Shown one piece after another: positions 34,609 through 44,847 of a stretch of DNA of 64,000 bases. The notes beneath the pieces are model-generated. The model saw only the letters and a list, made by a program, of their open reading frames with translations. It was not told the origin of the DNA and did not search any database. This stretch comes from Streptomyces sp. NBC_00344 (lineage in GTDB: Bacteria; Actinomycetota; Actinomycetes; Streptomycetales; Streptomycetaceae): NCBI RefSeq assembly GCF_036088315.1, contig NZ_CP107996.1:4981501-5045500 (forward strand). The letters run 5' to 3'. A program made the translations under genes and the position numbers. Numbering within the stretch: the first letter of the stretch is position 1; each line of letters begins with the position of its first letter.

Positions 34609-35391
34609 TCAGTGGATCTCCGTCACCAGCACATCCAGCTCCCACGGTTTCCCGGCCTTGCCCGGGGCGGATGCCTCCACCTGGTAGCCGAGGTCCCGCA
34701 ACGCCACGACGAGCTCGGCCGGACCGGCCGGAGCGGCGCCCGCCAGCAGCAGGTCCCGGACCATCCGTCCCTTGGTCGCCTTGTTGAAGTGGCTGACCAC
34801 CTTCCGGGTCGGCGCATGCAGAACCCGCACCGACGCCGTACGGTCCGCTACTTCACCCCGGGGCTTCCAGGCCGCCGCATACGCCGACGACCGCAGATCG
34901 AGGACCAGGCCGGAGCCCGCCGCCTCCGGGAGCACGGTGGCCATCGGGCCGCGCCAGTGTGCCCCCAGCGCACCGAGACCCGGCAGCTTGACCCCCATCG
35001 AGCAGCGGTAGGAGGGGATACGGTCACCGATCCGCACCGCGCCCCACAGCCCGGAGAAGACCAGCAGCGCCTTCCCTGCCCTGCGCCGCGCGGCCGGGTC
35101 CAGCGAGGGGAGATCCAGCGCGTCGTACAGCACACCGGTGTAGATCTGCCCGGCAGGACGGGCGCCGGCCGTGCGCAGCCCGGTGTTCTTGGCGACCTCG
35201 CCGCGCAGGCCCTCGCTCAGTCCCAGGACGATCCGGGCCTTCTCCCCGTCCGCCGCGCACAGTTCGATCAGCTCGTCGAGCACCGCGGCCCGTGCGGCGG
35301 CCAGCCCCGGCAGGGACAGCGACTCCGGCTTCAGCGGGGCACCTGAGCCGCTCGCGGCCTTTCCCTCGGACGGCGGCAAGAGCACGAGCAC
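34609..35391 (-). CDS. yaaA: YaaA-family peroxide stress protein
   Basis: A 260-residue YaaA/DUF328 protein. It has VLVLLPPSEGKA, IYTGVLYDALD, VFSGLWGAVRIGDRIPSYRCSMGVKLPG, the FNKATKGR helix-hairpin region and a C-terminal VVALRDLGYQVEAS. In E. coli YaaA limits free iron under peroxide stress and binds DNA with a helix-hairpin-helix. GTG 35391 follows AAGGAG at good spacing. Confidence 0.9.
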   Translation of the reverse strand: MLVLLPPSEGKAASGSGAPLKPESLSLPGLAAARAAVLDELIELCAADGEKARIVLGLSEGLRGEVAKNTGLRTAGARPAGQIYTGVLYDALDLPSLDPAARRRAGKALLVFSGLWGAVRIGDRIPSYRCSMGVKLPGLGALGAHWRGPMATVLPEAAGSGLVLDLRSSAYAAAWKPRGEVADRTASVRVLHAPTRKVVSHFNKATKGRMVRDLLLAGAAPAGPAELVVALRDLGYQVEASAPGKAGKPWELDVLVTEIH

Positions 35392-36156: not shown

Positions 36157-36675
36157 TCAGCGTGGCTCGGGGGACCGGAGTTCGTCGCGCAGCAGGTCCA
36201 TCAGCAGCCCGTCGTGGAAGCTGCCGTCCCGGCGCCGCTCGTACTGGCGCATGACGCCGACCGGACGGAAACCGAGACTCCGGTAGAGGCTGATCGCGGC
36301 CTCGTTGTCGGTCGCCGGGTCGATGGTGAGGCGGTGGTGGCCCCGCACGTCCAGCAGATGGCGGGCCAGGGTGTGAACGGCGTCGGCGCCGATGCCCTGC
36401 CGCTGCCGGCCTGGGTGGACGGCGATGTCGATCCCGGCGTGCCGGTATCCGGGTGTGTTCTCCTCGCAGGACTGGATGATGCCGACGCAGACCCCCGCGT
36501 ACTCGATGGCGTAGCTGCGGATGTCGTCGGGCGGCGCGCAGGCCTCCTCGGCCTGCTCGTCCGGGTCGCCCCACCAGCGGGCGACCTCGGGAGCCGCCAG
36601 GATCTCCCGGAAGCGCCGGAGGTCCGCCCGCACGGCGGGACGCAGACGGATGAGCCGTCCTGTAATGATCTCCAC
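36157..36675 (-). CDS. GNAT-family N-acetyltransferase, AAC(6')-like
   Basis: A 172-residue acetyltransferase. It starts EIITGRLIRLRPAVRADL, has the acetyl-CoA loop RQRQGIGADAVHTLARHLLD and the AAISLYRSLGFRPVGVMRQYERRRDG segment. The WWGDPDEQ region and overall length resemble AAC(6')-Ib-type aminoglycoside acetyltransferases and rimI/J-like homologues. Resistance is not implied. GTG 36675 follows GGAGG at five bases; an in-frame GTG at 36687 is possible. Confidence 0.8.
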   Translation of the reverse strand: MEIITGRLIRLRPAVRADLRRFREILAAPEVARWWGDPDEQAEEACAPPDDIRSYAIEYAGVCVGIIQSCEENTPGYRHAGIDIAVHPGRQRQGIGADAVHTLARHLLDVRGHHRLTIDPATDNEAAISLYRSLGFRPVGVMRQYERRRDGSFHDGLLMDLLRDELRSPEPR

Positions 36676-36861
36676 CGCAGCCTCCACCCGGTGTCGGCAC
36701 ACCCCGGAATGCGACGCTAGCCCACCGGGAGCCGTGGCACCGCGCACCGGGCCGCCGGGACGGTGGGTGTCCGGCTCTCCGGACACCCGGGAGATCAACC
36801 GACCACGGCCTGCCGCCGGTTGGCCCGCCCCGGAGCGCCGGTCCCCGCGCCTTGACCGGTC

Positions 36862-37881
36862 TCAGCCGGTGGCCGGCGGTCCGCGCAGGGCGCTGCCGTT
36901 CGTCCGCCAGGCGGGCAGCAACTTCCCGGCGAGCCGGTCCTCCAGCAGTCCGGTGGCTTCGACACCGAACGCGACGTCGGGTTCCAGGTGCGGCTCGCAG
37001 CTGAGCAGGCCGCCGATGACGTCGCGGCGGACCACCTGCTCGTGCACCGCGTCGGCTTCGACGTGTTCGTCGTAGAACCTCGCGGCGGCAGGCCCCGCGC
37101 CGGTACGGCGAAGAGCGGAGGCAAGCCGGCGGGAGCCCGGTGACGAGGTCACCTCGACGGCCGCGAAGTGACCGACGAGCGCCCCCCGGAGCGCCCGGTG
37201 CAGACCGAACAGCGACATCAGATTGACCGTGGCGAGCAGTTCGGCGGGCGAGGCGTCGAGATAGTGCCCGTAGGACGTGTCCAGTTCCAGGTCGTCCATG
37301 AGCTCGCCGAAGAGCCGGGCGTGGACCGATTCCGCCCTTCCGGCACCGAATTCATCGAACTCGACAGCCACCATGGCGGCCTTCGCCCGGCCGTGCAGAC
37401 GGGGAATGACCCAGGCGTGCGGGTCGGCCTCCTTGAGGTGGTAGAGGGAGCGCAGCGCCGCGTACTCCCTCAGCTGCCGGAGGGTCCCCTCGCTCGCCAG
37501 GTAGTGGCTGACACTCGTTCCGTCGTCCCCGGCGGGCTCGACCAGCAGGCCCGACATGGCTTCGTCCACGGTGGGCGCGCCGGGGACCCCGGTGCGCAGA
37601 GCACTCAGGAACCGTTCCTCCAGAACGCCTCGCAGTCCCAGCAGTCCGGGGTCCCACTCGCATTCGCCGTCCACACCTTCGAAGCCCTGATAGTGCAGCT
37701 CGTACAGGACATACAGGGCGAGCTGGAGGTCGTCGCCGAAGGGGTCCTCGGGAGCGGTTGCCGGATCCGGCAACCGGTGCGGGCCCCCGGAGCGCAGCGC
37801 CGAGACGACGGCGGCCGACAGCTCGCCCCGCGGGTCCGGAAGCCGCGCCGCGGTGCACCGTGAATCGTGGCAGGGGGCCAT
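36862..37881 (-). CDS. Iron-containing redox enzyme, haem-oxygenase-like diiron oxidase (HDO) family
   Basis: A 339-residue all-helical protein. Metal-ligand motifs of haem-oxygenase-like diiron oxidases are visible: YVLYELHYQGF (E61, H63) in the first core helix and FYDEHVEADAVHEQ near residue 270 in the last. Characterised HDOs (UndA, BesC, SznF) perform oxidative C-C or C-N chemistry. The ATG shares one base with the stop of the CDGSH gene, making this the last gene of a three-gene operon with an Fe-S protein and a HemK-like methyltransferase. The substrate is unknown. Confidence 0.8.
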   Translation of the reverse strand: MAPCHDSRCTAARLPDPRGELSAAVVSALRSGGPHRLPDPATAPEDPFGDDLQLALYVLYELHYQGFEGVDGECEWDPGLLGLRGVLEERFLSALRTGVPGAPTVDEAMSGLLVEPAGDDGTSVSHYLASEGTLRQLREYAALRSLYHLKEADPHAWVIPRLHGRAKAAMVAVEFDEFGAGRAESVHARLFGELMDDLELDTSYGHYLDASPAELLATVNLMSLFGLHRALRGALVGHFAAVEVTSSPGSRRLASALRRTGAGPAAARFYDEHVEADAVHEQVVRRDVIGGLLSCEPHLEPDVAFGVEATGLLEDRLAGKLLPAWRTNGSALRGPPATG

Positions 37882-38156
37882 CAGCCGGTCCCCTTCTCCT
37901 CGTTCGTCGTCTCCTCGTTCCTTCCGCGGGGAGCGATGTCCGGCGCTTTCTGCGATCCGCGTGGTACGCGCCGGCGGTGGCTGGTGTCGCACCACGGGTA
38001 GGTACGGCTCCTGCGGCAGACGCAGATGGCGACGACGAAGCGGGTCGAGACGGAGACGGACCCGTCATCGCCGACCACCTCCACCGGGCCCTCCACCAGA
38101 AGCGGGCCGCTGCCGTCGATCGTGACGCGGCGGGCGCGGTCAGGGCTGTTCGGCAC
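37881..38156 (-). CDS. CDGSH-type iron-sulfur protein (CDTSH variant)
   Basis: A 91-residue protein with the CDGSH cluster motif C-x-C-x2-S-x3-P-x-C-D-x-S-H at residues 45-60 (C45, C47, C56, H60). The usual Gly is Thr, giving CDTSH. These proteins hold a labile 2Fe-2S cluster with one His ligand and act in electron or cluster transfer. A charged tail (NEETTNEEKGTG) follows. It overlaps the methyltransferase gene by 17 bp and the HDO gene by one base. It is the natural electron donor candidate for the HDO enzyme. Confidence 0.88.
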   Translation of the reverse strand: MPNSPDRARRVTIDGSGPLLVEGPVEVVGDDGSVSVSTRFVVAICVCRRSRTYPWCDTSHRRRVPRGSQKAPDIAPRGRNEETTNEEKGTG

Positions 38157-38823
38157 GGATGACCACCAACTCCTCCTTGTCGGCGCCGTCCTCCAGAAGT
38201 GACTGCCGGCGCAGCCACGGCAGCCGTGAGAGCAGCACCGGTCCGAAGGGAACGAGTGCCCGGTCGCTCACGTTCGCCCGCAGGCCGGCCTCTTCCAGGC
38301 GGCGCACCGTCGCTCCTGCGCCGCACAGACCGGAATGAACCATGAGCAGCACACCGCCGGACCGCAGCAGCGCGGGCGCCGCGTCGCAGATGCGGTCCAC
38401 AACCGCCCGGCCGTCGGGCCCGGCGTCCCAGGCGCGTGCCGCGCCCTGTCCGTGCGGCCGGGTGTGGGGTGCGGGTACGTACGGCGGGTTGCTGACCACC
38501 ACGTCGTAGGACCGGTCCGGGGCCGAAGCAGTCAGATCGCTCCGGTGGACGGCTATGCGCTGCCGGGCGAGCGCGGCGTTGAGGCGGGTGGTCAGCACGG
38601 CCCGCAGGGCCACGTCCACGGCCGTCACACGGGCCCCCATGCGCGCCGCCTGCACCGCCAGCACGCCGCTGCCCGTGCCGATGTCGAGCAGATCGGTACC
38701 GAAGACGCTCTCCTCCCGGCGGAGAGCGCCGAGCAGCAGATGTGTGTCGTGCTGCGGGATGTAGACGCCGGGCAGGGTTCTGATGCGCGGGGGACCGGTC
38801 AGCATCGGCACGGTCGTTGACAT
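38140..38823 (-). CDS. HemK2/MTQ2-like class I methyltransferase
   Basis: A 227-residue SAM-dependent methyltransferase with DLLDIGTGSGVLAVQAARMGA as motif I, VTAVDVALRA and the catalytic NPPY motif (VVVSNPPYVPAP) of HemK-type N5-glutamine or small-molecule amine methyltransferases. It starts at ATG 38823 (MSTTVPMLTG) and is the first gene of the operon with the CDGSH and HDO proteins. In this context it may methylate a small metabolite rather than a release factor; that is inferred. Confidence 0.82.
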   Translation of the reverse strand: MSTTVPMLTGPPRIRTLPGVYIPQHDTHLLLGALRREESVFGTDLLDIGTGSGVLAVQAARMGARVTAVDVALRAVLTTRLNAALARQRIAVHRSDLTASAPDRSYDVVVSNPPYVPAPHTRPHGQGAARAWDAGPDGRAVVDRICDAAPALLRSGGVLLMVHSGLCGAGATVRRLEEAGLRANVSDRALVPFGPVLLSRLPWLRRQSLLEDGADKEELVVIRAEQP

Positions 38824-39194
38824 GAGGCACCTCCAGAACGCCCGCACCGTCTGAATCGCGGGTCATGTCTTCACGGTCAAGGCTCCGCTCGTTGGGGTCC
38901 GTGCGCCAGTCGGCCCCGACACAACGTGACGTCCGCTCACTGAGGGCACCCGGCCTGTTCGGTCCCTGGCACAGGTGCGGCGGAAGGACAGCGCCCCTTT
39001 CCGGGACATCCGGCGAACAGTGATCCGCGCCGTCCGGGACCTGTGGTGGATGTGATCACGGTGTGACCTGCACAAAGGCAGCGGATGTGAACGAGATGCA
39101 TAGGTTCGAATCCCAAGGGCACGCGTTTCACAGCCGCAAGAGCGGCACGTCGGCCTCTTCACAGAGGCACGAAGTCTTAAAGGCGCGAGGCGGG
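38824..39194. other. Divergent intergenic region upstream of the gas-vesicle operon
   Basis: 371 bp without a convincing gene. It must hold the promoters of the methyltransferase-CDGSH-HDO operon and of gvpO. It is less GC-rich to the right. Around 39099-39121 is TAGGTTCGAATCCC, resembling a tRNA T-arm but without the rest of a tRNA. I could not identify a clear sigma-factor consensus. Confidence 0.5.
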
Positions 39195-39494
39195 ATGATG
39201 GCAACGACCGACAGTAAAGACGGCAAGAGCAGCCGCGAGCGCCTTGATGTTCCCACGGCCATGCGGCGCGCTGCCGGCCAGCTTGCGCAAATGCTGCAAT
39301 GTGAGCCCAGTTCCGTCTCTGCGCTGAAAGCGACGGACGACGGCTGGTCGGCCGACGTCGAAGTCGTGGAGCTCGAGAAGGTCCCCGACACCGCAAGCGT
39401 AATGGCCACCTATCGGGTTTCCCTCGATCTGGAAGGCCAACTCGTGGGATACGAGCGAATTCGCCGTTACGCGAAGGGGCAGATCGACCGCTGA
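39195..39494 (+). CDS. gvpO: Gas vesicle protein GvpO
   Basis: A 99-residue protein of the GvpO family: RRAAGQLAQMLQCEPSSVSALKATDDGWSADVEVVELEKVPDTASVMATYRVSLDLEGQLVGYERIRRYAKGQ. The N-terminus is charged and likely disordered. It is the first gene of a ten-gene gvp operon in the order O-A-F-G-Y-Z-J-L-S-K. Two adjacent ATGs (39195, 39198) are possible starts. In haloarchaea GvpO is needed for vesicle formation and may be regulatory. Confidence 0.9.
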   Translation: MMATTDSKDGKSSRERLDVPTAMRRAAGQLAQMLQCEPSSVSALKATDDGWSADVEVVELEKVPDTASVMATYRVSLDLEGQLVGYERIRRYAKGQIDR

Positions 39495-39566
39495 GGTCGG
39501 ATCGGGAACCGGCTGTTATCGCGCCGGAACCAGCGCTTCCCCGTTAAGCAGGAAGGGAGTTGAACC

Positions 39567-40007
39567 ATGAGTATTGTCCAGCAGTCGAACTCGTCGAACA
39601 ACACAGGTGGGGGCTCGGGAAATCTCTACGATGTCCTGGAGCTCATTCTCGACCGAGGTCTCGTCATCGATGCCTTCGTCCGGGTCTCTCTCGTCGGTAT
39701 CGAGATACTCAAGATCGACGTCCGTGTGGTGGTCGCCAGTGTCGACACCTACCTGCGGTTCGCCGAGGCGTGCAACCGGCTCGACCTGGAGTCCGGGCGC
39801 AAGGCGCCGAGCCAGCTCACCGATCTCGTCGGCGACATGACCGAGAACGGCGCGAAGGGCAAGTCCAAGGGCGCGCTGACCGGCGCTGTCGAGGCGTTCA
39901 GCGAGTCCCTGCAGAAGGGCCGGGACGACTCCGAGGAGAAGGAGGAGCGCCCCGCGCGCAAGACCACTTCGAGCAGCCGCCGCAGCTCGAGCCGCCGAGA
40001 GGAGTAG
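39567..40007 (+). CDS. gvpA: Gas vesicle structural protein GvpA with basic C-terminal extension
   Basis: A 146-residue protein. Residues about 18-75 are the GvpA core ([53 protein letters not shown]), the amphipathic rib-forming unit. Typical GvpA is about 70 residues; here a Lys/Ser/Arg/Glu-rich tail of about 65 residues follows ([10 protein letters not shown]..., [15 protein letters not shown]). A good ribosome site (AGGAAGGGAG) precedes the ATG, as expected for the most abundant product. Confidence 0.92.
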
Positions 40008-40011
40008 TTCT

Positions 40012-40725
40012 GTGTCCACCTACATATACGCCGTCACCACGGCCGATCACCCGTTGCGTCTCAGTGACATCGCAGGCATCGGAGAACCGCCGTCGGCGCT
40101 GCGCGTCGTGCGGACGAAGGATCTCAGCGCGGTCGTGAGCGACGCACCCCCGGATCTGCGCGCCAAGCGGCGTGATCTCGTGGCGCACCAGACCGTGCTG
40201 GACGGGTTGCTGACCGACGGCCCCGCGCTGCCGATGCGCTTCGGTCTGGTGGGACCCGACGACGATCAGGTGATCGCCGTCCTGGAGCAGCAGCGTGACG
40301 CCTACCTGGGCCGGCTGAAGGAGGTCGACGGGTGCCTCGAGTACAACCTGAAGGTCGCCCGCGACGAGCAGGACCTGCTGCTGGAGATCGCCAACGAGCG
40401 TGACGAGGTGCGTGAGCTGAGCGAGCGCACCCGCAACAACCCGGGGGCCCGCGACGAGATGGTGGCCCTGGGCGAGTTGATCTCGCACGAAGTCCAGGTC
40501 CGTCAGGAACGGGCCTCCGAGGAGATCGTGGCGCGGCTGACGCCCGCTTCGGTGAGTGTCGCGGTCGGTGAGCCGACCAGGACGCACTTCCTGAACGTGT
40601 CCTTCCTCATCAAGCGTGACGAGGGGGCCGCTTTCTCCCAGGCCGTCCACGAAGAGGCGGAGTCGCGGGGCGACGCGTGGACGCTCTCACTGAACGGACC
40701 ACTGCCGCCCTACAGCTTCGTCTGA
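40012..40725 (+). CDS. gvpF: Gas vesicle protein GvpF (GvpF/GvpL family)
   Basis: A 237-residue GvpF/L protein: TYIYAVTTADHPL opening, LRAKRRDLVAHQTVLDGLLTDGPALPMRFG in the centre, VRELSERTRNNPG coiled region, and C-terminal SFLIKRDEGAAF to LNGPLPPYSFV. The GPxPPYSF ending is the family signature. It is a minor vesicle component involved in assembly initiation. GTG start four bases after the gvpA stop, so co-translated. Confidence 0.92.
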   Translation: MSTYIYAVTTADHPLRLSDIAGIGEPPSALRVVRTKDLSAVVSDAPPDLRAKRRDLVAHQTVLDGLLTDGPALPMRFGLVGPDDDQVIAVLEQQRDAYLGRLKEVDGCLEYNLKVARDEQDLLLEIANERDEVRELSERTRNNPGARDEMVALGELISHEVQVRQERASEEIVARLTPASVSVAVGEPTRTHFLNVSFLIKRDEGAAFSQAVHEEAESRGDAWTLSLNGPLPPYSFV

Positions 40726-40843
40726 GCCGGCGAGCGGAGCGCGGCGAACCGAGCAGGCGAACCAGCCCCACGAACCGGCCGGTCCCGAACCGAATTCCCG
40801 ACCGATCCCGTGAACGACCGCAACCGCTGAGCGGAGGACCGCG

Positions 40844-41101
40844 ATGGGACTCATCACGAACATCCTGACCTTGCCGCTGGCTCCGTTGCGCGGCACCGCC
40901 TGGGTCATCGACCAGGTGCTGGTGACCGCGGAGCGGGAGTACTACGACCCGGAACCCGTACGCGGTGAACTGGCGGCGCTCGAGAAGGACCTGCTGAGCG
41001 GCCGCATCGGAGAGGACGAGTTCGACCGCCGTGAGGACGAGTTGCTGGACAGGCTGGAATGGCTCGAAGCCAACCAGCGGCGCCTGCGGACCAATTCCTG
41101 A
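40844..41101 (+). CDS. gvpG: Gas vesicle protein GvpG
   Basis: An 85-residue protein beginning MGLITNILTLPLAPLRGTAWVIDQVLVTAEREYYDPEPVRGEL, the GvpG signature, followed by a charged helix (EKDLLSGRIGEDEFDRREDELLDRLEWLEANQRRL). It is required for vesicle formation in other systems. Good GGAGG ribosome site before the ATG. Confidence 0.92.
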   Translation: MGLITNILTLPLAPLRGTAWVIDQVLVTAEREYYDPEPVRGELAALEKDLLSGRIGEDEFDRREDELLDRLEWLEANQRRLRTNS

Positions 41102-41128
41102 CAACGGGGAGAACGAGGTGTACGAGAG

Positions 41129-41698
41129 ATGACAGGCAACGTCAAGATAGGCGTGGCCCTGGTGGGTGGCTATCTGCTGGGACGCACCAAGAAGGCCAAG
41201 ATGGCCATCGGCCTGGGCATGTTCCTGGCCGGCAAGAAACTCAGTCTCGACCCGGCCCAGCTGGGCAAGCTCGTGGCCAACTCGCCGGTACTCGGCAGCC
41301 TCAACAACCAGGTCCGCACGGAACTGGTCGAGGCCACCAAGTCGGCGGCGACATCGGCCCTCACCAAGCGGGCGAGCGGTCTGGCCGACTCGCTCCACGA
41401 ACGGACCCTGGGTCTTGGCGGAGCCGCCGGCCAGGAGGACCGCGAAGAGGAGCCCGAGGACGACCGGGACACGGAACACGCCGCCGAGGACGACCAGGAG
41501 CCGGAGAAGAAGCCGGCGCCCCGTAAGCGGGCTGCCGGTTCGGCTGCCAAGTCGGCTTCGGGCAAGGCGTCGTCCGGGGCGCGCCGCGCCGCATCGGGCG
41601 GTAGCCGTAAGGCGGCCTCGAGCGCACGTCAGAGCGCGTCGGGCGCCGGCAAGTCCGCCTCGCGGACGCGCACCGCCAAGAGCGGTGGTGCGAAGTGA
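41129..41698 (+). CDS. gvpY: Gas-vesicle cluster protein GvpY
   Basis: A 189-residue protein. The N-terminal part (VKIGVALVGGYLLGRTKKAKMAIGLGMFLAGKKL) is hydrophobic and could embed in or wrap the shell. A helical segment follows, then an acidic stretch (EDREEEPEDDRDTEHAAEDDQEPE), and a long Ala/Ser/Lys/Arg low-complexity tail. Its place between gvpG and gvpZ is the Streptomyces gvpY position. The tail resembles histone-like sequences. Its stop overlaps the gvpZ start (GTGA). Confidence 0.78.
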   Translation: MTGNVKIGVALVGGYLLGRTKKAKMAIGLGMFLAGKKLSLDPAQLGKLVANSPVLGSLNNQVRTELVEATKSAATSALTKRASGLADSLHERTLGLGGAAGQEDREEEPEDDRDTEHAAEDDQEPEKKPAPRKRAAGSAAKSASGKASSGARRAASGGSRKAASSARQSASGAGKSASRTRTAKSGGAK

Positions 41699-42936
41699 GT
41701 GACTCCGCTTTCAGCAGGCTGAAGAGCGAGGTGGCGCAGAACCCCGCCACCGACCGGCTCAAGGACGAACTGCAGAACTATGCGCGGGCCCGGGCCGAGC
41801 ACGCCGTCACCACGCTCGGACACAAGCTCGGCGAGAGCGTCAGCAAGCTTGCCGACCCGGGAGCGGGTGTGGGCGGACTCGCGGGCAGCCTGGCCAAGGG
41901 CGGCAAGGCGCTCAGTGAGGGCAAGTCCCCGGCGCAGGCCGCCCTGTCCGCAGGCGGCGCCCACCTCAAGGACACCCTCAAGGAAAAGGTCAAGGGCATG
42001 TTCGGCAAGGGCCGAAAGGGCGGCGGGGGCAAGTCCAAGAGCGTGACGATCGTCGAGGACATCGATGTGGGTGTCCCCGTGCGTGAGGCGTACGACCAGT
42101 GGACGCAGTTCCAGGAGTTCAGCACCTTCGCCAAGGGCGTCGTGAGTGTCGACAAGGCGGACGACACCAGCACCAACTGGAAGGTGAAGGTCGCCAAGTC
42201 CACCCGCAGCTGGAAGGCGAACGTCACCGAGCAGGTGCCGGACGAGCGGATCACCTGGACCACCGAAGGCGCGAAGGGCACCGTCAAGGGTGTGGTGACC
42301 TTCCACCGCATCACCGACAACCTGACGCGGGTCCTGCTCGTTCTCGAGTACTTCCCCAAGGGCCTTTTCGAGAAGACCGGCAACATCTGGCGGGCCCAGG
42401 GCCGCCGCGCCCGGCTGGACCTCAAGCTCTACCGGAAGTTCATCATGATGCGCGGCGAGGCCACCGACGGCTGGCGCGGCGAGATCCGGGACGGCGAGGT
42501 CGTCGTGGAGCACGACGAAGCCGTGGAAGAAGAAGAGGCCCGCGCCGAGGAGGAGGAGCGGGAAGGCGCCGACGCCTCCGGGGAGGCCGAGGACGCAGGG
42601 GACGAAGAGGAGCCTGACGAGGGGTTCTCCGATGCGGACGGCGAACTCGACGAGGAGTACGAGGACGAGGAGCAGATCCCCGAGGAGGACGAGCCCGAGG
42701 ACGAGCCCGAAGAGGACGAGCCGGAGGACGACGAACTCAGCGACGAGCAGGACGCCGAGTACCGCGACGAGGAGGACATCCCCGCTGAGGACGAGGCCGA
42801 GGGCGACCCGCAGGACGAGGACGCCGAGGCCGGGGACGAGCCCCGGGGCACCGAAGAGGACGAGGGTGAAGAGGAAGAGGAAGAAGACCAGCCGGTTCGC
42901 CGTTCCCGGCGCCGTACCGCCTCGGCCCGTCGCTGA
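41695..42936 (+). CDS. gvpZ: Gas-vesicle cluster SRPBCC-domain protein GvpZ, acidic tail
   Basis: A 413-residue protein. Residues about 1-110 are helical (FSRLKSEVAQNPATDRLKDELQNYARARAEHA). Residues 115-265 form an SRPBCC/START-like lipid-binding domain (SVTIVEDIDVGVPVREAYDQWTQFQEFSTFAKGV, RITWTTEGAKGTVKGVVTFHRI, WRGEIRDGEV). The last 140 or so residues are mainly Glu and Asp, with a final basic RRSRRRTASARR. GTG start overlaps the gvpY stop. The SRPBCC fold could carry a lipid or hydrophobic peptide to the vesicle. Confidence 0.85.
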   Translation: MSDSAFSRLKSEVAQNPATDRLKDELQNYARARAEHAVTTLGHKLGESVSKLADPGAGVGGLAGSLAKGGKALSEGKSPAQAALSAGGAHLKDTLKEKVKGMFGKGRKGGGGKSKSVTIVEDIDVGVPVREAYDQWTQFQEFSTFAKGVVSVDKADDTSTNWKVKVAKSTRSWKANVTEQVPDERITWTTEGAKGTVKGVVTFHRITDNLTRVLLVLEYFPKGLFEKTGNIWRAQGRRARLDLKLYRKFIMMRGEATDGWRGEIRDGEVVVEHDEAVEEEEARAEEEEREGADASGEAEDAGDEEEPDEGFSDADGELDEEYEDEEQIPEEDEPEDEPEEDEPEDDELSDEQDAEYRDEEDIPAEDEAEGDPQDEDAEAGDEPRGTEEDEGEEEEEEDQPVRRSRRRTASARR

Positions 42937-42968
42937 CGTGAGCCGACAGCACAGACAAGGCTGAAGAC

Positions 42969-43406
42969 GTGTCCGATTCACTGGCCGGCCGTATGGGGAC
43001 CTCCTCCGGGGCGTCCCCGTACGGCCAGCAAGGGTCCTCCGCCAACCTCGCCGACATCCTTGAGCGGGTCCTGGACAAGGGCATCGTCATAGCGGGTGAC
43101 ATCCAGATCAACCTGCTGGACATCGAGCTGCTGACGATCAAGCTCAGGCTTCTGGTCGCTTCCGTGGACAAGGCCAAGGAGATGGGCATCGACTGGTGGG
43201 AGCACGACCCCTCCCTCTCCTCCCGCGCCCGTTCACCCCAGCAGGTCACCACCGGCCGGGACACCGCGGACGCTGATCCGCTGGCGCAGGAGAACGCCCG
43301 TCTCAAGGCGGAACTGGCCGAACTGCGCGCGGCGGCGGGCCTTCCCGCCGCCCGGGAGACAGCGGAGACGGCCGACGACACCGGCAGCGGGGAGAAGAAG
43401 CAGTGA
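42969..43406 (+). CDS. gvpJ: Gas vesicle protein GvpJ (GvpA-like minor component)
   Basis: A 145-residue protein with a GvpA-like core (NLADILERVLDKGIVIAGDIQINLLDIELLTIKLRLLVASVDKAKEMGIDWW) and a charged C-terminal region (ENARLKAELAELRAAAG). The family builds the cone tips of the vesicle. GTG start; its stop overlaps the gvpL start. Confidence 0.9.
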   Translation: MSDSLAGRMGTSSGASPYGQQGSSANLADILERVLDKGIVIAGDIQINLLDIELLTIKLRLLVASVDKAKEMGIDWWEHDPSLSSRARSPQQVTTGRDTADADPLAQENARLKAELAELRAAAGLPAARETAETADDTGSGEKKQ

Positions 43407-44233
43407 GCACCGAGGCCCCGGCAGCCGCAGCCGGCATCTCCTACGTCTATGCCGTCGGTCGCGCCGGCACCGGGCTGGACACGATGTCCGGCCCGGTGCC
43501 CGGCCTGGACGGAGGCGTCCTGCGAACGGTGCGTGCCGCCGGCCTCGACGCGCTGGTGTCGTCCGTGTCGGCTCGGACCTTCAGCACCGAGGGCATGAAG
43601 GCGCAGATGGAGGATCTGAAGCGGCTGGAGGAGATCGCCCGTACACATCACCTGGTGGTGGAAGCGGCGTATGCCTGCTCCACCGTCCTCCCCATGCGCC
43701 TGGCGACGGTCTACCTGGACGACACCAGGGTGACGGAGATGCTGCACCAACGCGGGGCGGACTTCTGCGGGTTGCTCGCGCGGCTGGAGGACCATGTCGA
43801 ACTCGGCGTCAAGGTGTACGCGGACCTGCGGCAGCCGGCGGAAGCAGAGACGGCGGACGCGGTGAGCACCCCCGCGCCGGTCAGCCCCGGGCGTGCCTAT
43901 CTGCAGAAGCGCAGGGCGCAGCGGCGCAGCACGCAGGACGTGTACCGGGCCGCGGGCGCCCTGGCGGCCGAGGTGCCGGGCCGGGTGGCCGCACTGGCCC
44001 GTGACAGGGTCGCTCACCGGCCGCAGCAGGGTGAACTGGCCACTGCCGAGGGCGAGAACATCGCCAATGACGCCTATCTGGTCCCGGCGGCCCGAGCCGG
44101 GGAATTCCGTGCCGCGCTGGACGGCCTGGCCGAGGATGTCCCCGGCGTACGGATCGAGATCACCGGTCCCTGGGCGCCGTACTCCTTCGCCACCCCGCCC
44201 GCGGAGGCGGGGGGCGGACGCAGTGAGCGGTGA
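43403..44233 (+). CDS. gvpL: Gas vesicle protein GvpL (GvpF/GvpL family)
   Basis: A 276-residue GvpF/L homologue (SYVYAVGRAGTGLDT, EEIARTHHLVVEAAYACSTVLPMRLATVYLDD, GRAYLQKRRAQRRSTQDVY, and C-terminal ITGPWAPYSFATPP). It differs from gvpF by its longer N-terminal half. GTG start overlaps gvpJ by four bases; its end overlaps gvpS by 11. Confidence 0.9.
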   Translation: MSTEAPAAAAGISYVYAVGRAGTGLDTMSGPVPGLDGGVLRTVRAAGLDALVSSVSARTFSTEGMKAQMEDLKRLEEIARTHHLVVEAAYACSTVLPMRLATVYLDDTRVTEMLHQRGADFCGLLARLEDHVELGVKVYADLRQPAEAETADAVSTPAPVSPGRAYLQKRRAQRRSTQDVYRAAGALAAEVPGRVAALARDRVAHRPQQGELATAEGENIANDAYLVPAARAGEFRAALDGLAEDVPGVRIEITGPWAPYSFATPPAEAGGGRSER

Positions 44234-44432
44234 CGTCACGTCCATCGGGTCCGGAACCGAGTCCCTGGCGGGCCGGCAGGTCGCCCTGATCGACCTGCTG
44301 GACCGGCTGCTCAACGGCGGTGCCGTTCTCACCGGAGATCTGGTGCTTTCCGTCGCCGATGTGGATCTGGTGCACATCAATCTCCGGGCGGTTATCCGCT
44401 CCATCACTTCCGATGAACCGGCTCCTTGGTGA
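44223..44432 (+). CDS. gvpS: Gas vesicle protein GvpS (short GvpA-like)
   Basis: A 69-residue GvpA/J/M-like protein: LAGRQVALIDLLDRLLNGGAVLTGDLVLSVADVDLVHINLRAVIRSI. GTG 44223 is chosen because the family opens a few residues before RQVALIDLLDRL; it overlaps gvpL by 11 bases in another frame. Confidence 0.85.
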   Translation: MSGDVTSIGSGTESLAGRQVALIDLLDRLLNGGAVLTGDLVLSVADVDLVHINLRAVIRSITSDEPAPW

Positions 44433-44442
44433 GGAGGGCACA

Positions 44443-44847
44443 ATGACGGCCGAGAATGACCGGCCGCCCTCGGACGGGGCGGCGTTCGGCGAAGTGGCAC
44501 AGGCCGCGGTACGGGCTTTCGGGGTTCTCCCGGCGGGACCGGAGGAGAGCCGCCCGGCCGGTGACACGGCACAGCGGCTCACAACGGATCCGGAGACGGT
44601 GGAGCGAGATCTCATCAAATTGGTGCTCACCATTGTGGAGCTGCTCCGCCAGCTCATGGAACGCACCGCACTTCACCGCGTGGACCAGGGTGATCTGAGT
44701 GATGATCAGGAAGAGCGGATCGGACTCACTCTGATGATTCTTCAGGACCGTATGACCGAACTGTGCGACAGGTACGGGCTCACCATGGACGATCTCAATC
44801 TGGATCTCGGACCGCTGGGGTCATTGCTTCCGCGCGGCGATTCCTGA
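44443..44847 (+). CDS. gvpK: Gas vesicle protein GvpK
   Basis: A 134-residue GvpK: TDPETVERDLIKLVLTIVELLRQLMERTALHRVDQGDLSDDQEERIGLTLMILQDRMTELCDRYGLTMDDLNLDLGPLG. This is the full helical signature. ATG follows GAGGAGGG. It closes the standard gvp set. Confidence 0.92.
   Translation: MTAENDRPPSDGAAFGEVAQAAVRAFGVLPAGPEESRPAGDTAQRLTTDPETVERDLIKLVLTIVELLRQLMERTALHRVDQGDLSDDQEERIGLTLMILQDRMTELCDRYGLTMDDLNLDLGPLGSLLPRGDS

What the first reader, a model, noticed from the sequence alone, without database searches (positions are those of the whole stretch)
36862..38823. Coupled operon: haem-oxygenase-like diiron oxidase, CDGSH protein and HemK-like methyltransferase
The three genes overlap (17 bp and 1 bp), indicating coordinated synthesis. 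An HDO oxygenase, a likely Fe-S electron donor (CDTSH variant) and an NPPY methyltransferase form a credible small pathway for oxidising and methylating a metabolite. I know of no described pathway with this set, and it sits immediately beside the gas-vesicle operon on the opposite strand.
Basis: partly seen in the sequence, partly recalled or inferred. Interest (0 to 1): 0.7.

Follow-up and report, generated by a model that had tools for sequence, protein, structure and literature searches.

The report
Conserved oxygenase, iron-sulfur, methyltransferase trio
Three adjacent genes, for an oxygen-using iron enzyme, a small iron-sulfur protein and a methyl-transferring enzyme, form a widely conserved but uncharacterised set in Streptomyces-type bacteria and may be a stress-linked oxidation system with its own electron supply.

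Summary
Window 36862-38823 (- strand) holds a HemK2-like methyltransferase (MT), a CDGSH protein resembling type 4 and a PF14518 haem-oxygenase-like oxygenase (HDO), overlapping by 17 and 1 bp. All seven SznF-type metal ligands are present, as in 160 of 160 homologue rows (152 distinct). The HDO is in 160 of 199 sampled genomes of the window's genus at E<1e-40 (165 at E<=1e-3) and in 39 of 236 actinobacterial genera. The trio is kept in five gene orders, and trio-type MT occurs with HDO in 31 of 32 genomes, five times unlinked, so the association is functional. No other gene family travels with it. Best reading: CDGSH supplies electrons to a SznF-like oxygenase, MT methylates the same target, and the product serves stress physiology. 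Donor role, reaction, substrate and stress role are inferred. A SigB-like promoter motif is enriched upstream of relatives but absent upstream of this copy; stress-gene neighbourhood enrichments are not individually significant. Sixteen of 64 HDO genomes have no CDGSH hit. Precedents: MboA/MboB (HDO with dedicated redox partner) and DtpC (HDO protecting dried Acinetobacter). New variant of a known kind. Structure prediction never ran.

The parts
38140..38823 (-). HemK2/MTQ2-like SAM methyltransferase (MT), 227 aa; NPPYVP at residues 112-117
   Evidence: TIGR00537 111.9 bits against cut-off 87; profile of 38 relatives to human HemK2/N6AMT1 2.3e-23; NPPYVP and V20-Y21-x-P23 invariant in 38 rows
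37881..38156 (-). CDGSH [2Fe-2S]-type protein (CDTSH variant), 91 aa, GTG start; overlaps MT by 17 bp
   Evidence: PF09360 8.1e-16; C45, C47, C56, D57, T58, S59, H60, R61 invariant in 24 rows
36862..37881 (-). Haem-oxygenase-like dimetal oxygenase (HDO, PF14518), 339 aa, ATG overlapping the CDGSH stop by 1 bp; inferred ligands E151, E177, H187, E243, H273, D277, H280
   Evidence: PF14518 4.7e-55; alignment with SznF 6m9r; all seven residues in 160 of 160 homologue rows (152 distinct)

Best explanation
The three genes encode one oxidation-methylation system of general (probably stress) physiology. HDO binds a non-haem diiron or Fe/Mn centre with a SznF-like 3His/4carboxylate ligand set and activates O2 (inferred from invariant ligands). 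The CDGSH protein, a type-4-like [2Fe-2S] protein, is its dedicated electron donor (inferred). The most likely chemistry is oxygenation of a nitrogen, because the closest solved relatives by sequence are N-oxygenases (inferred, weak). In the lineages that have it, the HemK2-like methyltransferase methylates a nitrogen of the same substrate before or after oxidation (inferred from near-strict co-occurrence). The product protects cells under stress, as the HDO DtpC does in dried Acinetobacter (inferred, weakest step). Shown: the genes, the ligands, the conserved linkage and the co-occurrence. Not shown: any activity, electron transfer, substrate or phenotype.
For: Linkage: trio in 122 of 138 loci within 4 kb; five orders among 107 full-trio rows, at least 8 changes of order on a FastTree tree (101 distinct). 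Co-occurrence in 396 phylum genomes: HDO in 64; trio-type MT in 32, of which 31 have HDO (Fisher 4e-27) and 31 have CDGSH; CDGSH in 48 of 64 HDO genomes against 64 of 332 others (1e-17). In five genomes MT and HDO are unlinked: 172, 195 and 224 kb apart, and twice on other contigs. Outside the window's genus CDGSH is within 2.5 kb of HDO in 24 of 40 loci and MT in 11 of 40. Ligands: all seven SznF-type residues in 160 of 160 rows; SznF residues E215, H225, E281, H311, D315, H318 from passages of PMC11705231, E189 recalled. Closest PDB sequences PbrRohS 1.4e-9, HrmI 5.7e-9, SznF 8e-9. Characterised HDOs other than FlcD need auxiliary reductants (PMC11363339 passages). MboA/MboB is a published HDO-redox partner pair (PMC13185094 passages). 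HDO is acidic (median pI 5.24, 135 rows), CDGSH basic (9.03, 120 rows). Stress link: motif GTGT/GTTT/GGGT-N15-GGG(C/A/T)A(C/T) in 14 of 64 MT/CDGSH-first and 12 of 47 HDO-first upstreams, against 3 of 2000 random 200-mers and 6 of 653 upstreams of other genes, close to the SigB-type consensus in PMC8346170 passages; DtpC (PMC13232832).
Against: 16 of 64 HDO genomes have no CDGSH hit at 1e-5, so the HDO can live without this donor. 64 genomes have CDGSH hits and no HDO, many of them weak and perhaps other families. The SigB-like motif is absent from the window's own 300 bp upstream, and most relatives lack the strict form (50 of 64 and 35 of 47). Neighbourhood enrichments over a 40-region control were not individually significant: GvpA 5 of 80 against 0 of 40, p 0.13; SigB-like 7 of 80 against 0 of 40, p 0.053; RsbW-like 11 of 80 against 2 of 40, p 0.12; YbdK 6 of 80 against 1 of 40, p 0.26; CsbD 1 of 80 against 0 of 40; Mn-catalase and GT20 0 of 80. 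Sequence similarity to N-oxygenases is remote, and HDOs with the same ligands can catalyse different reactions (PMC13108848 section 11). No structure model could be made.
Confidence: 0.42

Rival explanations
1. Redox protection without a product: HDO fed by CDGSH reduces O2 or peroxide, or sequesters iron, and MT is a peripheral partner.
For: DtpC limits H2O2 in dried cells, and its authors name scavenging and iron sequestration as options (PMC13232832). YaaA (PF03883 peroxide stress protein) lies at 34609-35391 of the window; Mn-catalase within the fetched 16 kb of 3 of 44 non-genus and plasmid loci.
Against: A scavenger needs no methyltransferase, yet MT co-occurs with HDO in 31 of 32 genomes. 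No Mn-catalase in the 80 flanked loci.
Confidence: 0.18
2. The CDGSH protein is not an electron donor but supplies iron or a cluster to the labile metal site of the HDO, or senses redox state.
For: The diiron cluster of many HDOs is labile (PMC13108848 section 4). Cluster transfer by CDGSH proteins of the mitoNEET type is recalled. 16 of 64 HDO genomes lack a CDGSH hit.
Against: Characterised HDOs other than FlcD need a reductant and the three genes offer no other candidate donor.
Confidence: 0.15
3. A specialised-metabolite tailoring pathway.
For: Most characterised HDOs act in natural-product biosynthesis (PMC13108848 section 4).
Against: Present in 160 of 199 sampled genomes of the genus at E<1e-40; no other gene family in more than 30 of 125 gene sets. 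No scan for polyketide or peptide synthase genes was made.
Confidence: 0.15
4. The target is a protein: HDO oxidises and MT N-methylates a side chain, possibly of one of the partners (compare self-sacrificing CADD).
For: HemK2 and PrmC methylate glutamine in proteins (family knowledge; closest solved MT relatives are HemK2 and PrmC/HemK). HDO self-modification is known for CADD (PMC13108848).
Against: No fourth conserved gene that could be a target was found; conserved unlinked targets cannot be seen this way.
Confidence: 0.1

Closest known systems
SznF HDO domain (streptozotocin), HrmI, RohS: HDO N-oxygenases
   Same: PF14518-type sequence similarity and, for SznF, all seven ligand positions
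   Different: Those act in antibiotic pathways; SznF has a cupin domain that is absent here; similarity is remote (E about 1e-8 to 1e-9 with a profile)
MboA/MboB (mangotoxin), described by its authors as possibly the first dedicated HDO-redox partner pair (PMC13185094 passages)
   Same: An HDO gene beside a [2Fe-2S] protein gene; acidic HDO and basic partner (for the trio)
   Different: MboB is an NAD(P)H-flavin-Fe2S2 reductase; here the partner is a small CDGSH protein without flavin domain, conserved over many genera and joined by a methyltransferase
DtpC of Acinetobacter baumannii, HDO of desiccation tolerance (PMC13232832; abstract, passages and Discussion seen)
   Same: An HDO outside a known biosynthetic cluster; six metal ligands
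   Different: DtpC is co-transcribed with a catalase; no CDGSH or methyltransferase is mentioned in the main text (word search); no direct sequence comparison was made here
Type 4 CISD, e.g. RsCISD (PMC3174974; abstract and passages seen)
   Same: Single CDGSH motif, 3Cys-1His ligands, proline motif before it, Arg/Lys after the His ligand
   Different: CDTSH in place of CDGSH; the passages seen report no partner
HemK2/N6AMT1 and PrmC
   Same: NPPY motif; TIGR00537 over its cut-off
   Different: The release-factor role is unlikely: the genome has a second, weaker match to the MT profile, listed at genome level only (G000, 2 matches), which may be PrmC (inferred)

Membership tests
HDO superfamily (PF14518) | Profile match over curated cut-off | tested here: met
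   186.6 bits, cut-off 28.9
HDO superfamily (PF14518) | Three His and three carboxylate metal ligands | tested here: met
   E177, H187, E243, H273, D277, H280 align with SznF E215, H225, E281, H311, D315, H318; 160 of 160 rows
HDO superfamily (PF14518), SznF-like 3H/4C subset | Additional glutamate ligand | tested here: met
   E151 aligns with the residue numbered 189 in the 6m9r chain; that E189 is the seventh ligand is recalled; 160 of 160 rows
HDO superfamily (PF14518) | Haem-oxygenase-like fold | not tested
HDO superfamily (PF14518) | Dimetal cofactor and O2 activation | not testable with these tools
   Needs purified protein
Type 4 CISD | Single CxC-x8-C-x3-H motif | tested here: met
   C45, C47, C56, H60 invariant in 24 rows
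Type 4 CISD | Lys or Arg after the His ligand | tested here: met
   R61 invariant in 24 rows; criterion from PMC3174974 passages
Type 4 CISD | [2Fe-2S] cluster and dimer | not testable with these tools
   Needs purified protein
HemK2/MTQ2 methyltransferases (TIGR00537) | Profile match over cut-off and NPPY motif | tested here: met
   111.9 bits, cut-off 87; NPPYVP invariant in 38 rows
HemK2/MTQ2 methyltransferases (TIGR00537) | Methylates Gln of release factors or another protein | not testable with these tools
   No substrate known
SigB-type stress regulon | SigB-like promoter upstream of the operon | tested here: not met
   No match in 300 bp upstream of the window's MT, even with the loosest pattern, though enriched in relatives; the window's operon is not filed as a regulon member
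DtpC family | Operon with catalase katE | tested here: not met
   No catalase among the three genes; HDO sequence not compared with DtpC

The most novel reading that the evidence does not exclude
CDGSH proteins of this kind are dedicated electron donors of haem-oxygenase-like oxygenases, and the trio makes an unknown oxygenated, methylated protective compound (or protein mark) that most Streptomyces-type bacteria use under stress: a core stress product missed because it is not made by a classical biosynthetic cluster.
Probability: 0.25. Interest if true: 0.8.

Novelty: new variant of a known kind. Interest (0 to 1): 0.55.

Why it matters
About a dozen HDOs had been validated by the 2026 review, mostly in natural-product pathways (PMC13108848 section 4), and their physiological electron donors are largely open; MboA/MboB is described as possibly the first dedicated pair. 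This trio offers a second candidate pair that is present in many genera, a candidate role for a CDGSH protein in Actinobacteria, and a genetically tractable HDO that does not appear to belong to a fixed larger gene cluster. It makes two open questions directly testable: which protein reduces HDOs in cells, and whether HDOs other than DtpC serve stress protection.

Tried and rejected
Chance adjacency: rejected. Gas vesicles as part of the system: rejected as a constant trait; GvpA within up to 10 kb in 5 of 80 loci, in varied orientations, above a rough chance figure of 0.3 that assumes 1.6 gvp clusters per 8.5 Mb genome, but 0 of 40 in control regions gives only p 0.13. Defence: PADLOC gave nothing for HDO and CDGSH; for MT a mad2 methyltransferase stretch (3.2e-20) and a weak MTase_II hit, read as the common methyltransferase fold. 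Dimethylargininase beside the HDO of a Kitasatospora plasmid as a substrate clue: found in 0 of 80 and 1 of 44 loci, dropped. HDO-CDGSH fusion: looked at by frame in the table only, none seen. Papers: searches returned 0; (CDGSH and Streptomyces) listed 10, of which PMC3174974 was opened. The library lacks most subscription journals.

Structure prediction was asked for many times and always answered busy, so no fold search was made. An N-oxygenase assignment by phylogeny was not possible because full reference sequences were not at hand.

Limits of the counts: the set of loci L059-L138 is the best 80 of a capped scan, mostly Streptomyces by title; some loci come from the same or nearly the same genome (135 HDO rows, 127 distinct). 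Genomes of the genome search are unnamed. Trio-type MT was set by me at the gap in scores (167 bits and up, next genome 111). Gene calls are from a home-made GC-frame caller.

Full report
The observation. HDO matches PF14518 (4.7e-55), the small protein matches the CDGSH family PF09360 (8.1e-16), and the third is a methyltransferase that passes the NCBI cut-off for HemK2/MTQ2. The ATG at 37881 is the better start of HDO; an upstream GTG at 37995 is open too. The window's genome has one PF14518 match at E<=0.001.

Distribution. The HDO protein has a match in 165 of 199 genomes of the window's genus at E<=0.001, of which 160 are stronger than 1e-40. In 396 genomes of the phylum 64 match at 1e-10, in 39 of 236 genera. 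The genus is Streptomyces by inference: the best 80 loci of the named genome scan are mostly titled Streptomyces, with a few Actinacidiphila and one Actinobacteria bacterium. Copies also lie on plasmids and large second replicons: 16 plasmid records match, 11 of them over at least 80% of the query.

Linkage. In L002-L031 all three genes are found in 29 of 30 loci; L020 lacks MT within its short flank. Over 138 loci, 122 hold the three within 4 kb. The orders differ: MT-CDGSH-HDO, HDO-MT-CDGSH, HDO facing a CDGSH-MT pair, and two rare ones. Among 160 labelled rows, 107 carry a full trio in five orders, with at least 8 changes of order on a FastTree tree; 101 of these are distinct. Labels undercount, since pieces with internal stops or at locus ends were dropped. 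In 40 loci outside the genus, CDGSH is within 2.5 kb of HDO in 24, MT in 11, both in 10. Apart from the trio, the commonest gene family around the loci is in 30 of 125 gene sets (80 named loci, 44 others and the window).

Co-occurrence. In the 396 phylum genomes, trio-type MT is in 32, and 31 of these have HDO; HDO overall is in 64 (Fisher 4e-27). CDGSH hits at 1e-5 are in 112: 48 of the 64 HDO genomes and 64 of the 332 others (1e-17). All three are in 30 genomes, HDO and CDGSH without MT in 18, HDO alone in 15. In five genomes MT and HDO are unlinked (172, 195 and 224 kb apart, twice on other contigs); in four of them CDGSH lies beside HDO and in one beside MT (coordinates). This nested pattern says that MT depends on HDO, and that HDO can exist without CDGSH (16 of 64), which counts against an exclusive donor.

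The oxidase. A profile of 41 sequences finds PbrRohS (1.4e-9), HrmI (5.7e-9) and SznF (8e-9) as the closest solved sequences. The printed SznF alignment places E151, E177, H187, E243, H273, D277 and H280 on residues 189, 215, 225, 281, 311, 315 and 318 of the 6m9r chain. Six of these are named as essential SznF residues in PMC11705231 (passages); the seventh, E189, is recalled, and PMC13108848 (section 4) says that SznF has an extra glutamate ligand and that about 25% of HDOs are of that kind. All seven are kept in 160 of 160 homologue rows, 152 of them distinct.

The CDGSH protein and the methyltransferase. The four cluster ligands and the CDTSHR stretch are invariant in 24 sequences. A single motif, a proline motif before it and an Arg after the His fit type 4 CDGSH proteins as described in PMC3174974 (abstract and passages). 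HDO is acidic (median pI 5.24, 135 rows) and CDGSH basic (9.03, 120 rows), which permits docking but proves nothing. MT is nearest to human HemK2/N6AMT1 among solved sequences (2.3e-23). The genome has a second, weaker match to the MT profile, perhaps PrmC.

Regulation and surroundings. In HDO-first loci with a further trio gene downstream on the strand, GGGTACCC lies upstream in 38 of 51, mostly exactly 15 bp before the ATG, against 58 of 2760 random 300-mers, 1 of 653 upstreams of other genes and 0 of 653 at that position. Anchored on it, a GNNT-like box appears 15 bp upstream (44 distinct sequences). An MT-first group shows GTGT-N15-GGGCAC. With one strict pattern for both, 14 of 64 and 12 of 47 upstreams match, against 3 of 2000 and 6 of 653. 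SigB-type promoters of S. coelicolor have a GTTT or GNNT -35 and a GGG..A -10 (PMC8346170 passages). The position suggests leaderless transcripts in the HDO-first group. The pattern was found in the same sequences on which it was counted, related sequences are not independent, and the window's own upstream has no match. Plasmid copies lie beside a gas-vesicle operon, SigB-type sigma genes and SpoIIE/STAS/CsbD genes, but a 40-region control gave no single significant enrichment for the 80 loci.

Mechanism. My commitment is an O2-activating HDO fed by its CDGSH partner, most likely oxygenating a nitrogen, with MT methylating the same target in part of the lineages, for a product used under stress. 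I put functional association of the three at about 0.95, a dimetal oxygenase at about 0.9, CDGSH as donor at about 0.6, N-oxygenation at about 0.4 and a stress role at about 0.5. Support from elsewhere: characterised HDOs other than FlcD need auxiliary reductants (PMC11363339 passages); MboA needs MboB, and its authors call the pair possibly the first dedicated one (PMC13185094 passages); DtpC protects dried Acinetobacter baumannii, limits H2O2 and loses its effect when metal ligands are changed, and its authors knew of no other HDO with such a role (PMC13232832 abstract, passages and Discussion).

Novelty. The parts belong to known families. The set of HDO, CDGSH protein and HemK2-like methyltransferase was not found in print by the searches, in an open-access library that lacks most subscription journals. 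Because a dedicated HDO redox partner and a stress HDO are each known, I rate it a new variant of a known kind.

Noticed in passing
window 39063-44847 (+): Gas-vesicle operon: GvpO, GvpA, two GvpF/GvpL, GvpK, with an SRPBCC/polyketide-cyclase-like protein (41695-42936) inside it (GvpA and sequence).
   Followed up: partly
window 34609-35391 (-): YaaA peroxide stress protein (PF03883 8.1e-37) about 1.5 kb downstream of the HDO, on the same strand.
   Followed up: no
window 36157-36786 (-): GNAT acetyltransferase (PF00583 7.9e-15) directly downstream of the HDO on the same strand; not seen as a recurring partner.
   Followed up: partly
L143, L157, L158, L160, L162, L168, L174, L175, L177: In 9 of 40 loci outside the genus a gene of about 340 aa, weakly like glycosyltransferase family 2 (PF13641 0.0002, below cut-off), follows the HDO directly on the same strand.
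   Followed up: partly
L139 (Curtobacterium plasmid pW21): A 62 kb plasmid carries the HDO-CDGSH pair without the methyltransferase.
   Followed up: no
L156, L161: HDO without CDGSH beside Ku and LigD-type primase genes.
   Followed up: no
L177 (G427): Two divergent HDO genes about 0.7 kb apart, with no CDGSH hit in that genome at 1e-5.
   Followed up: no
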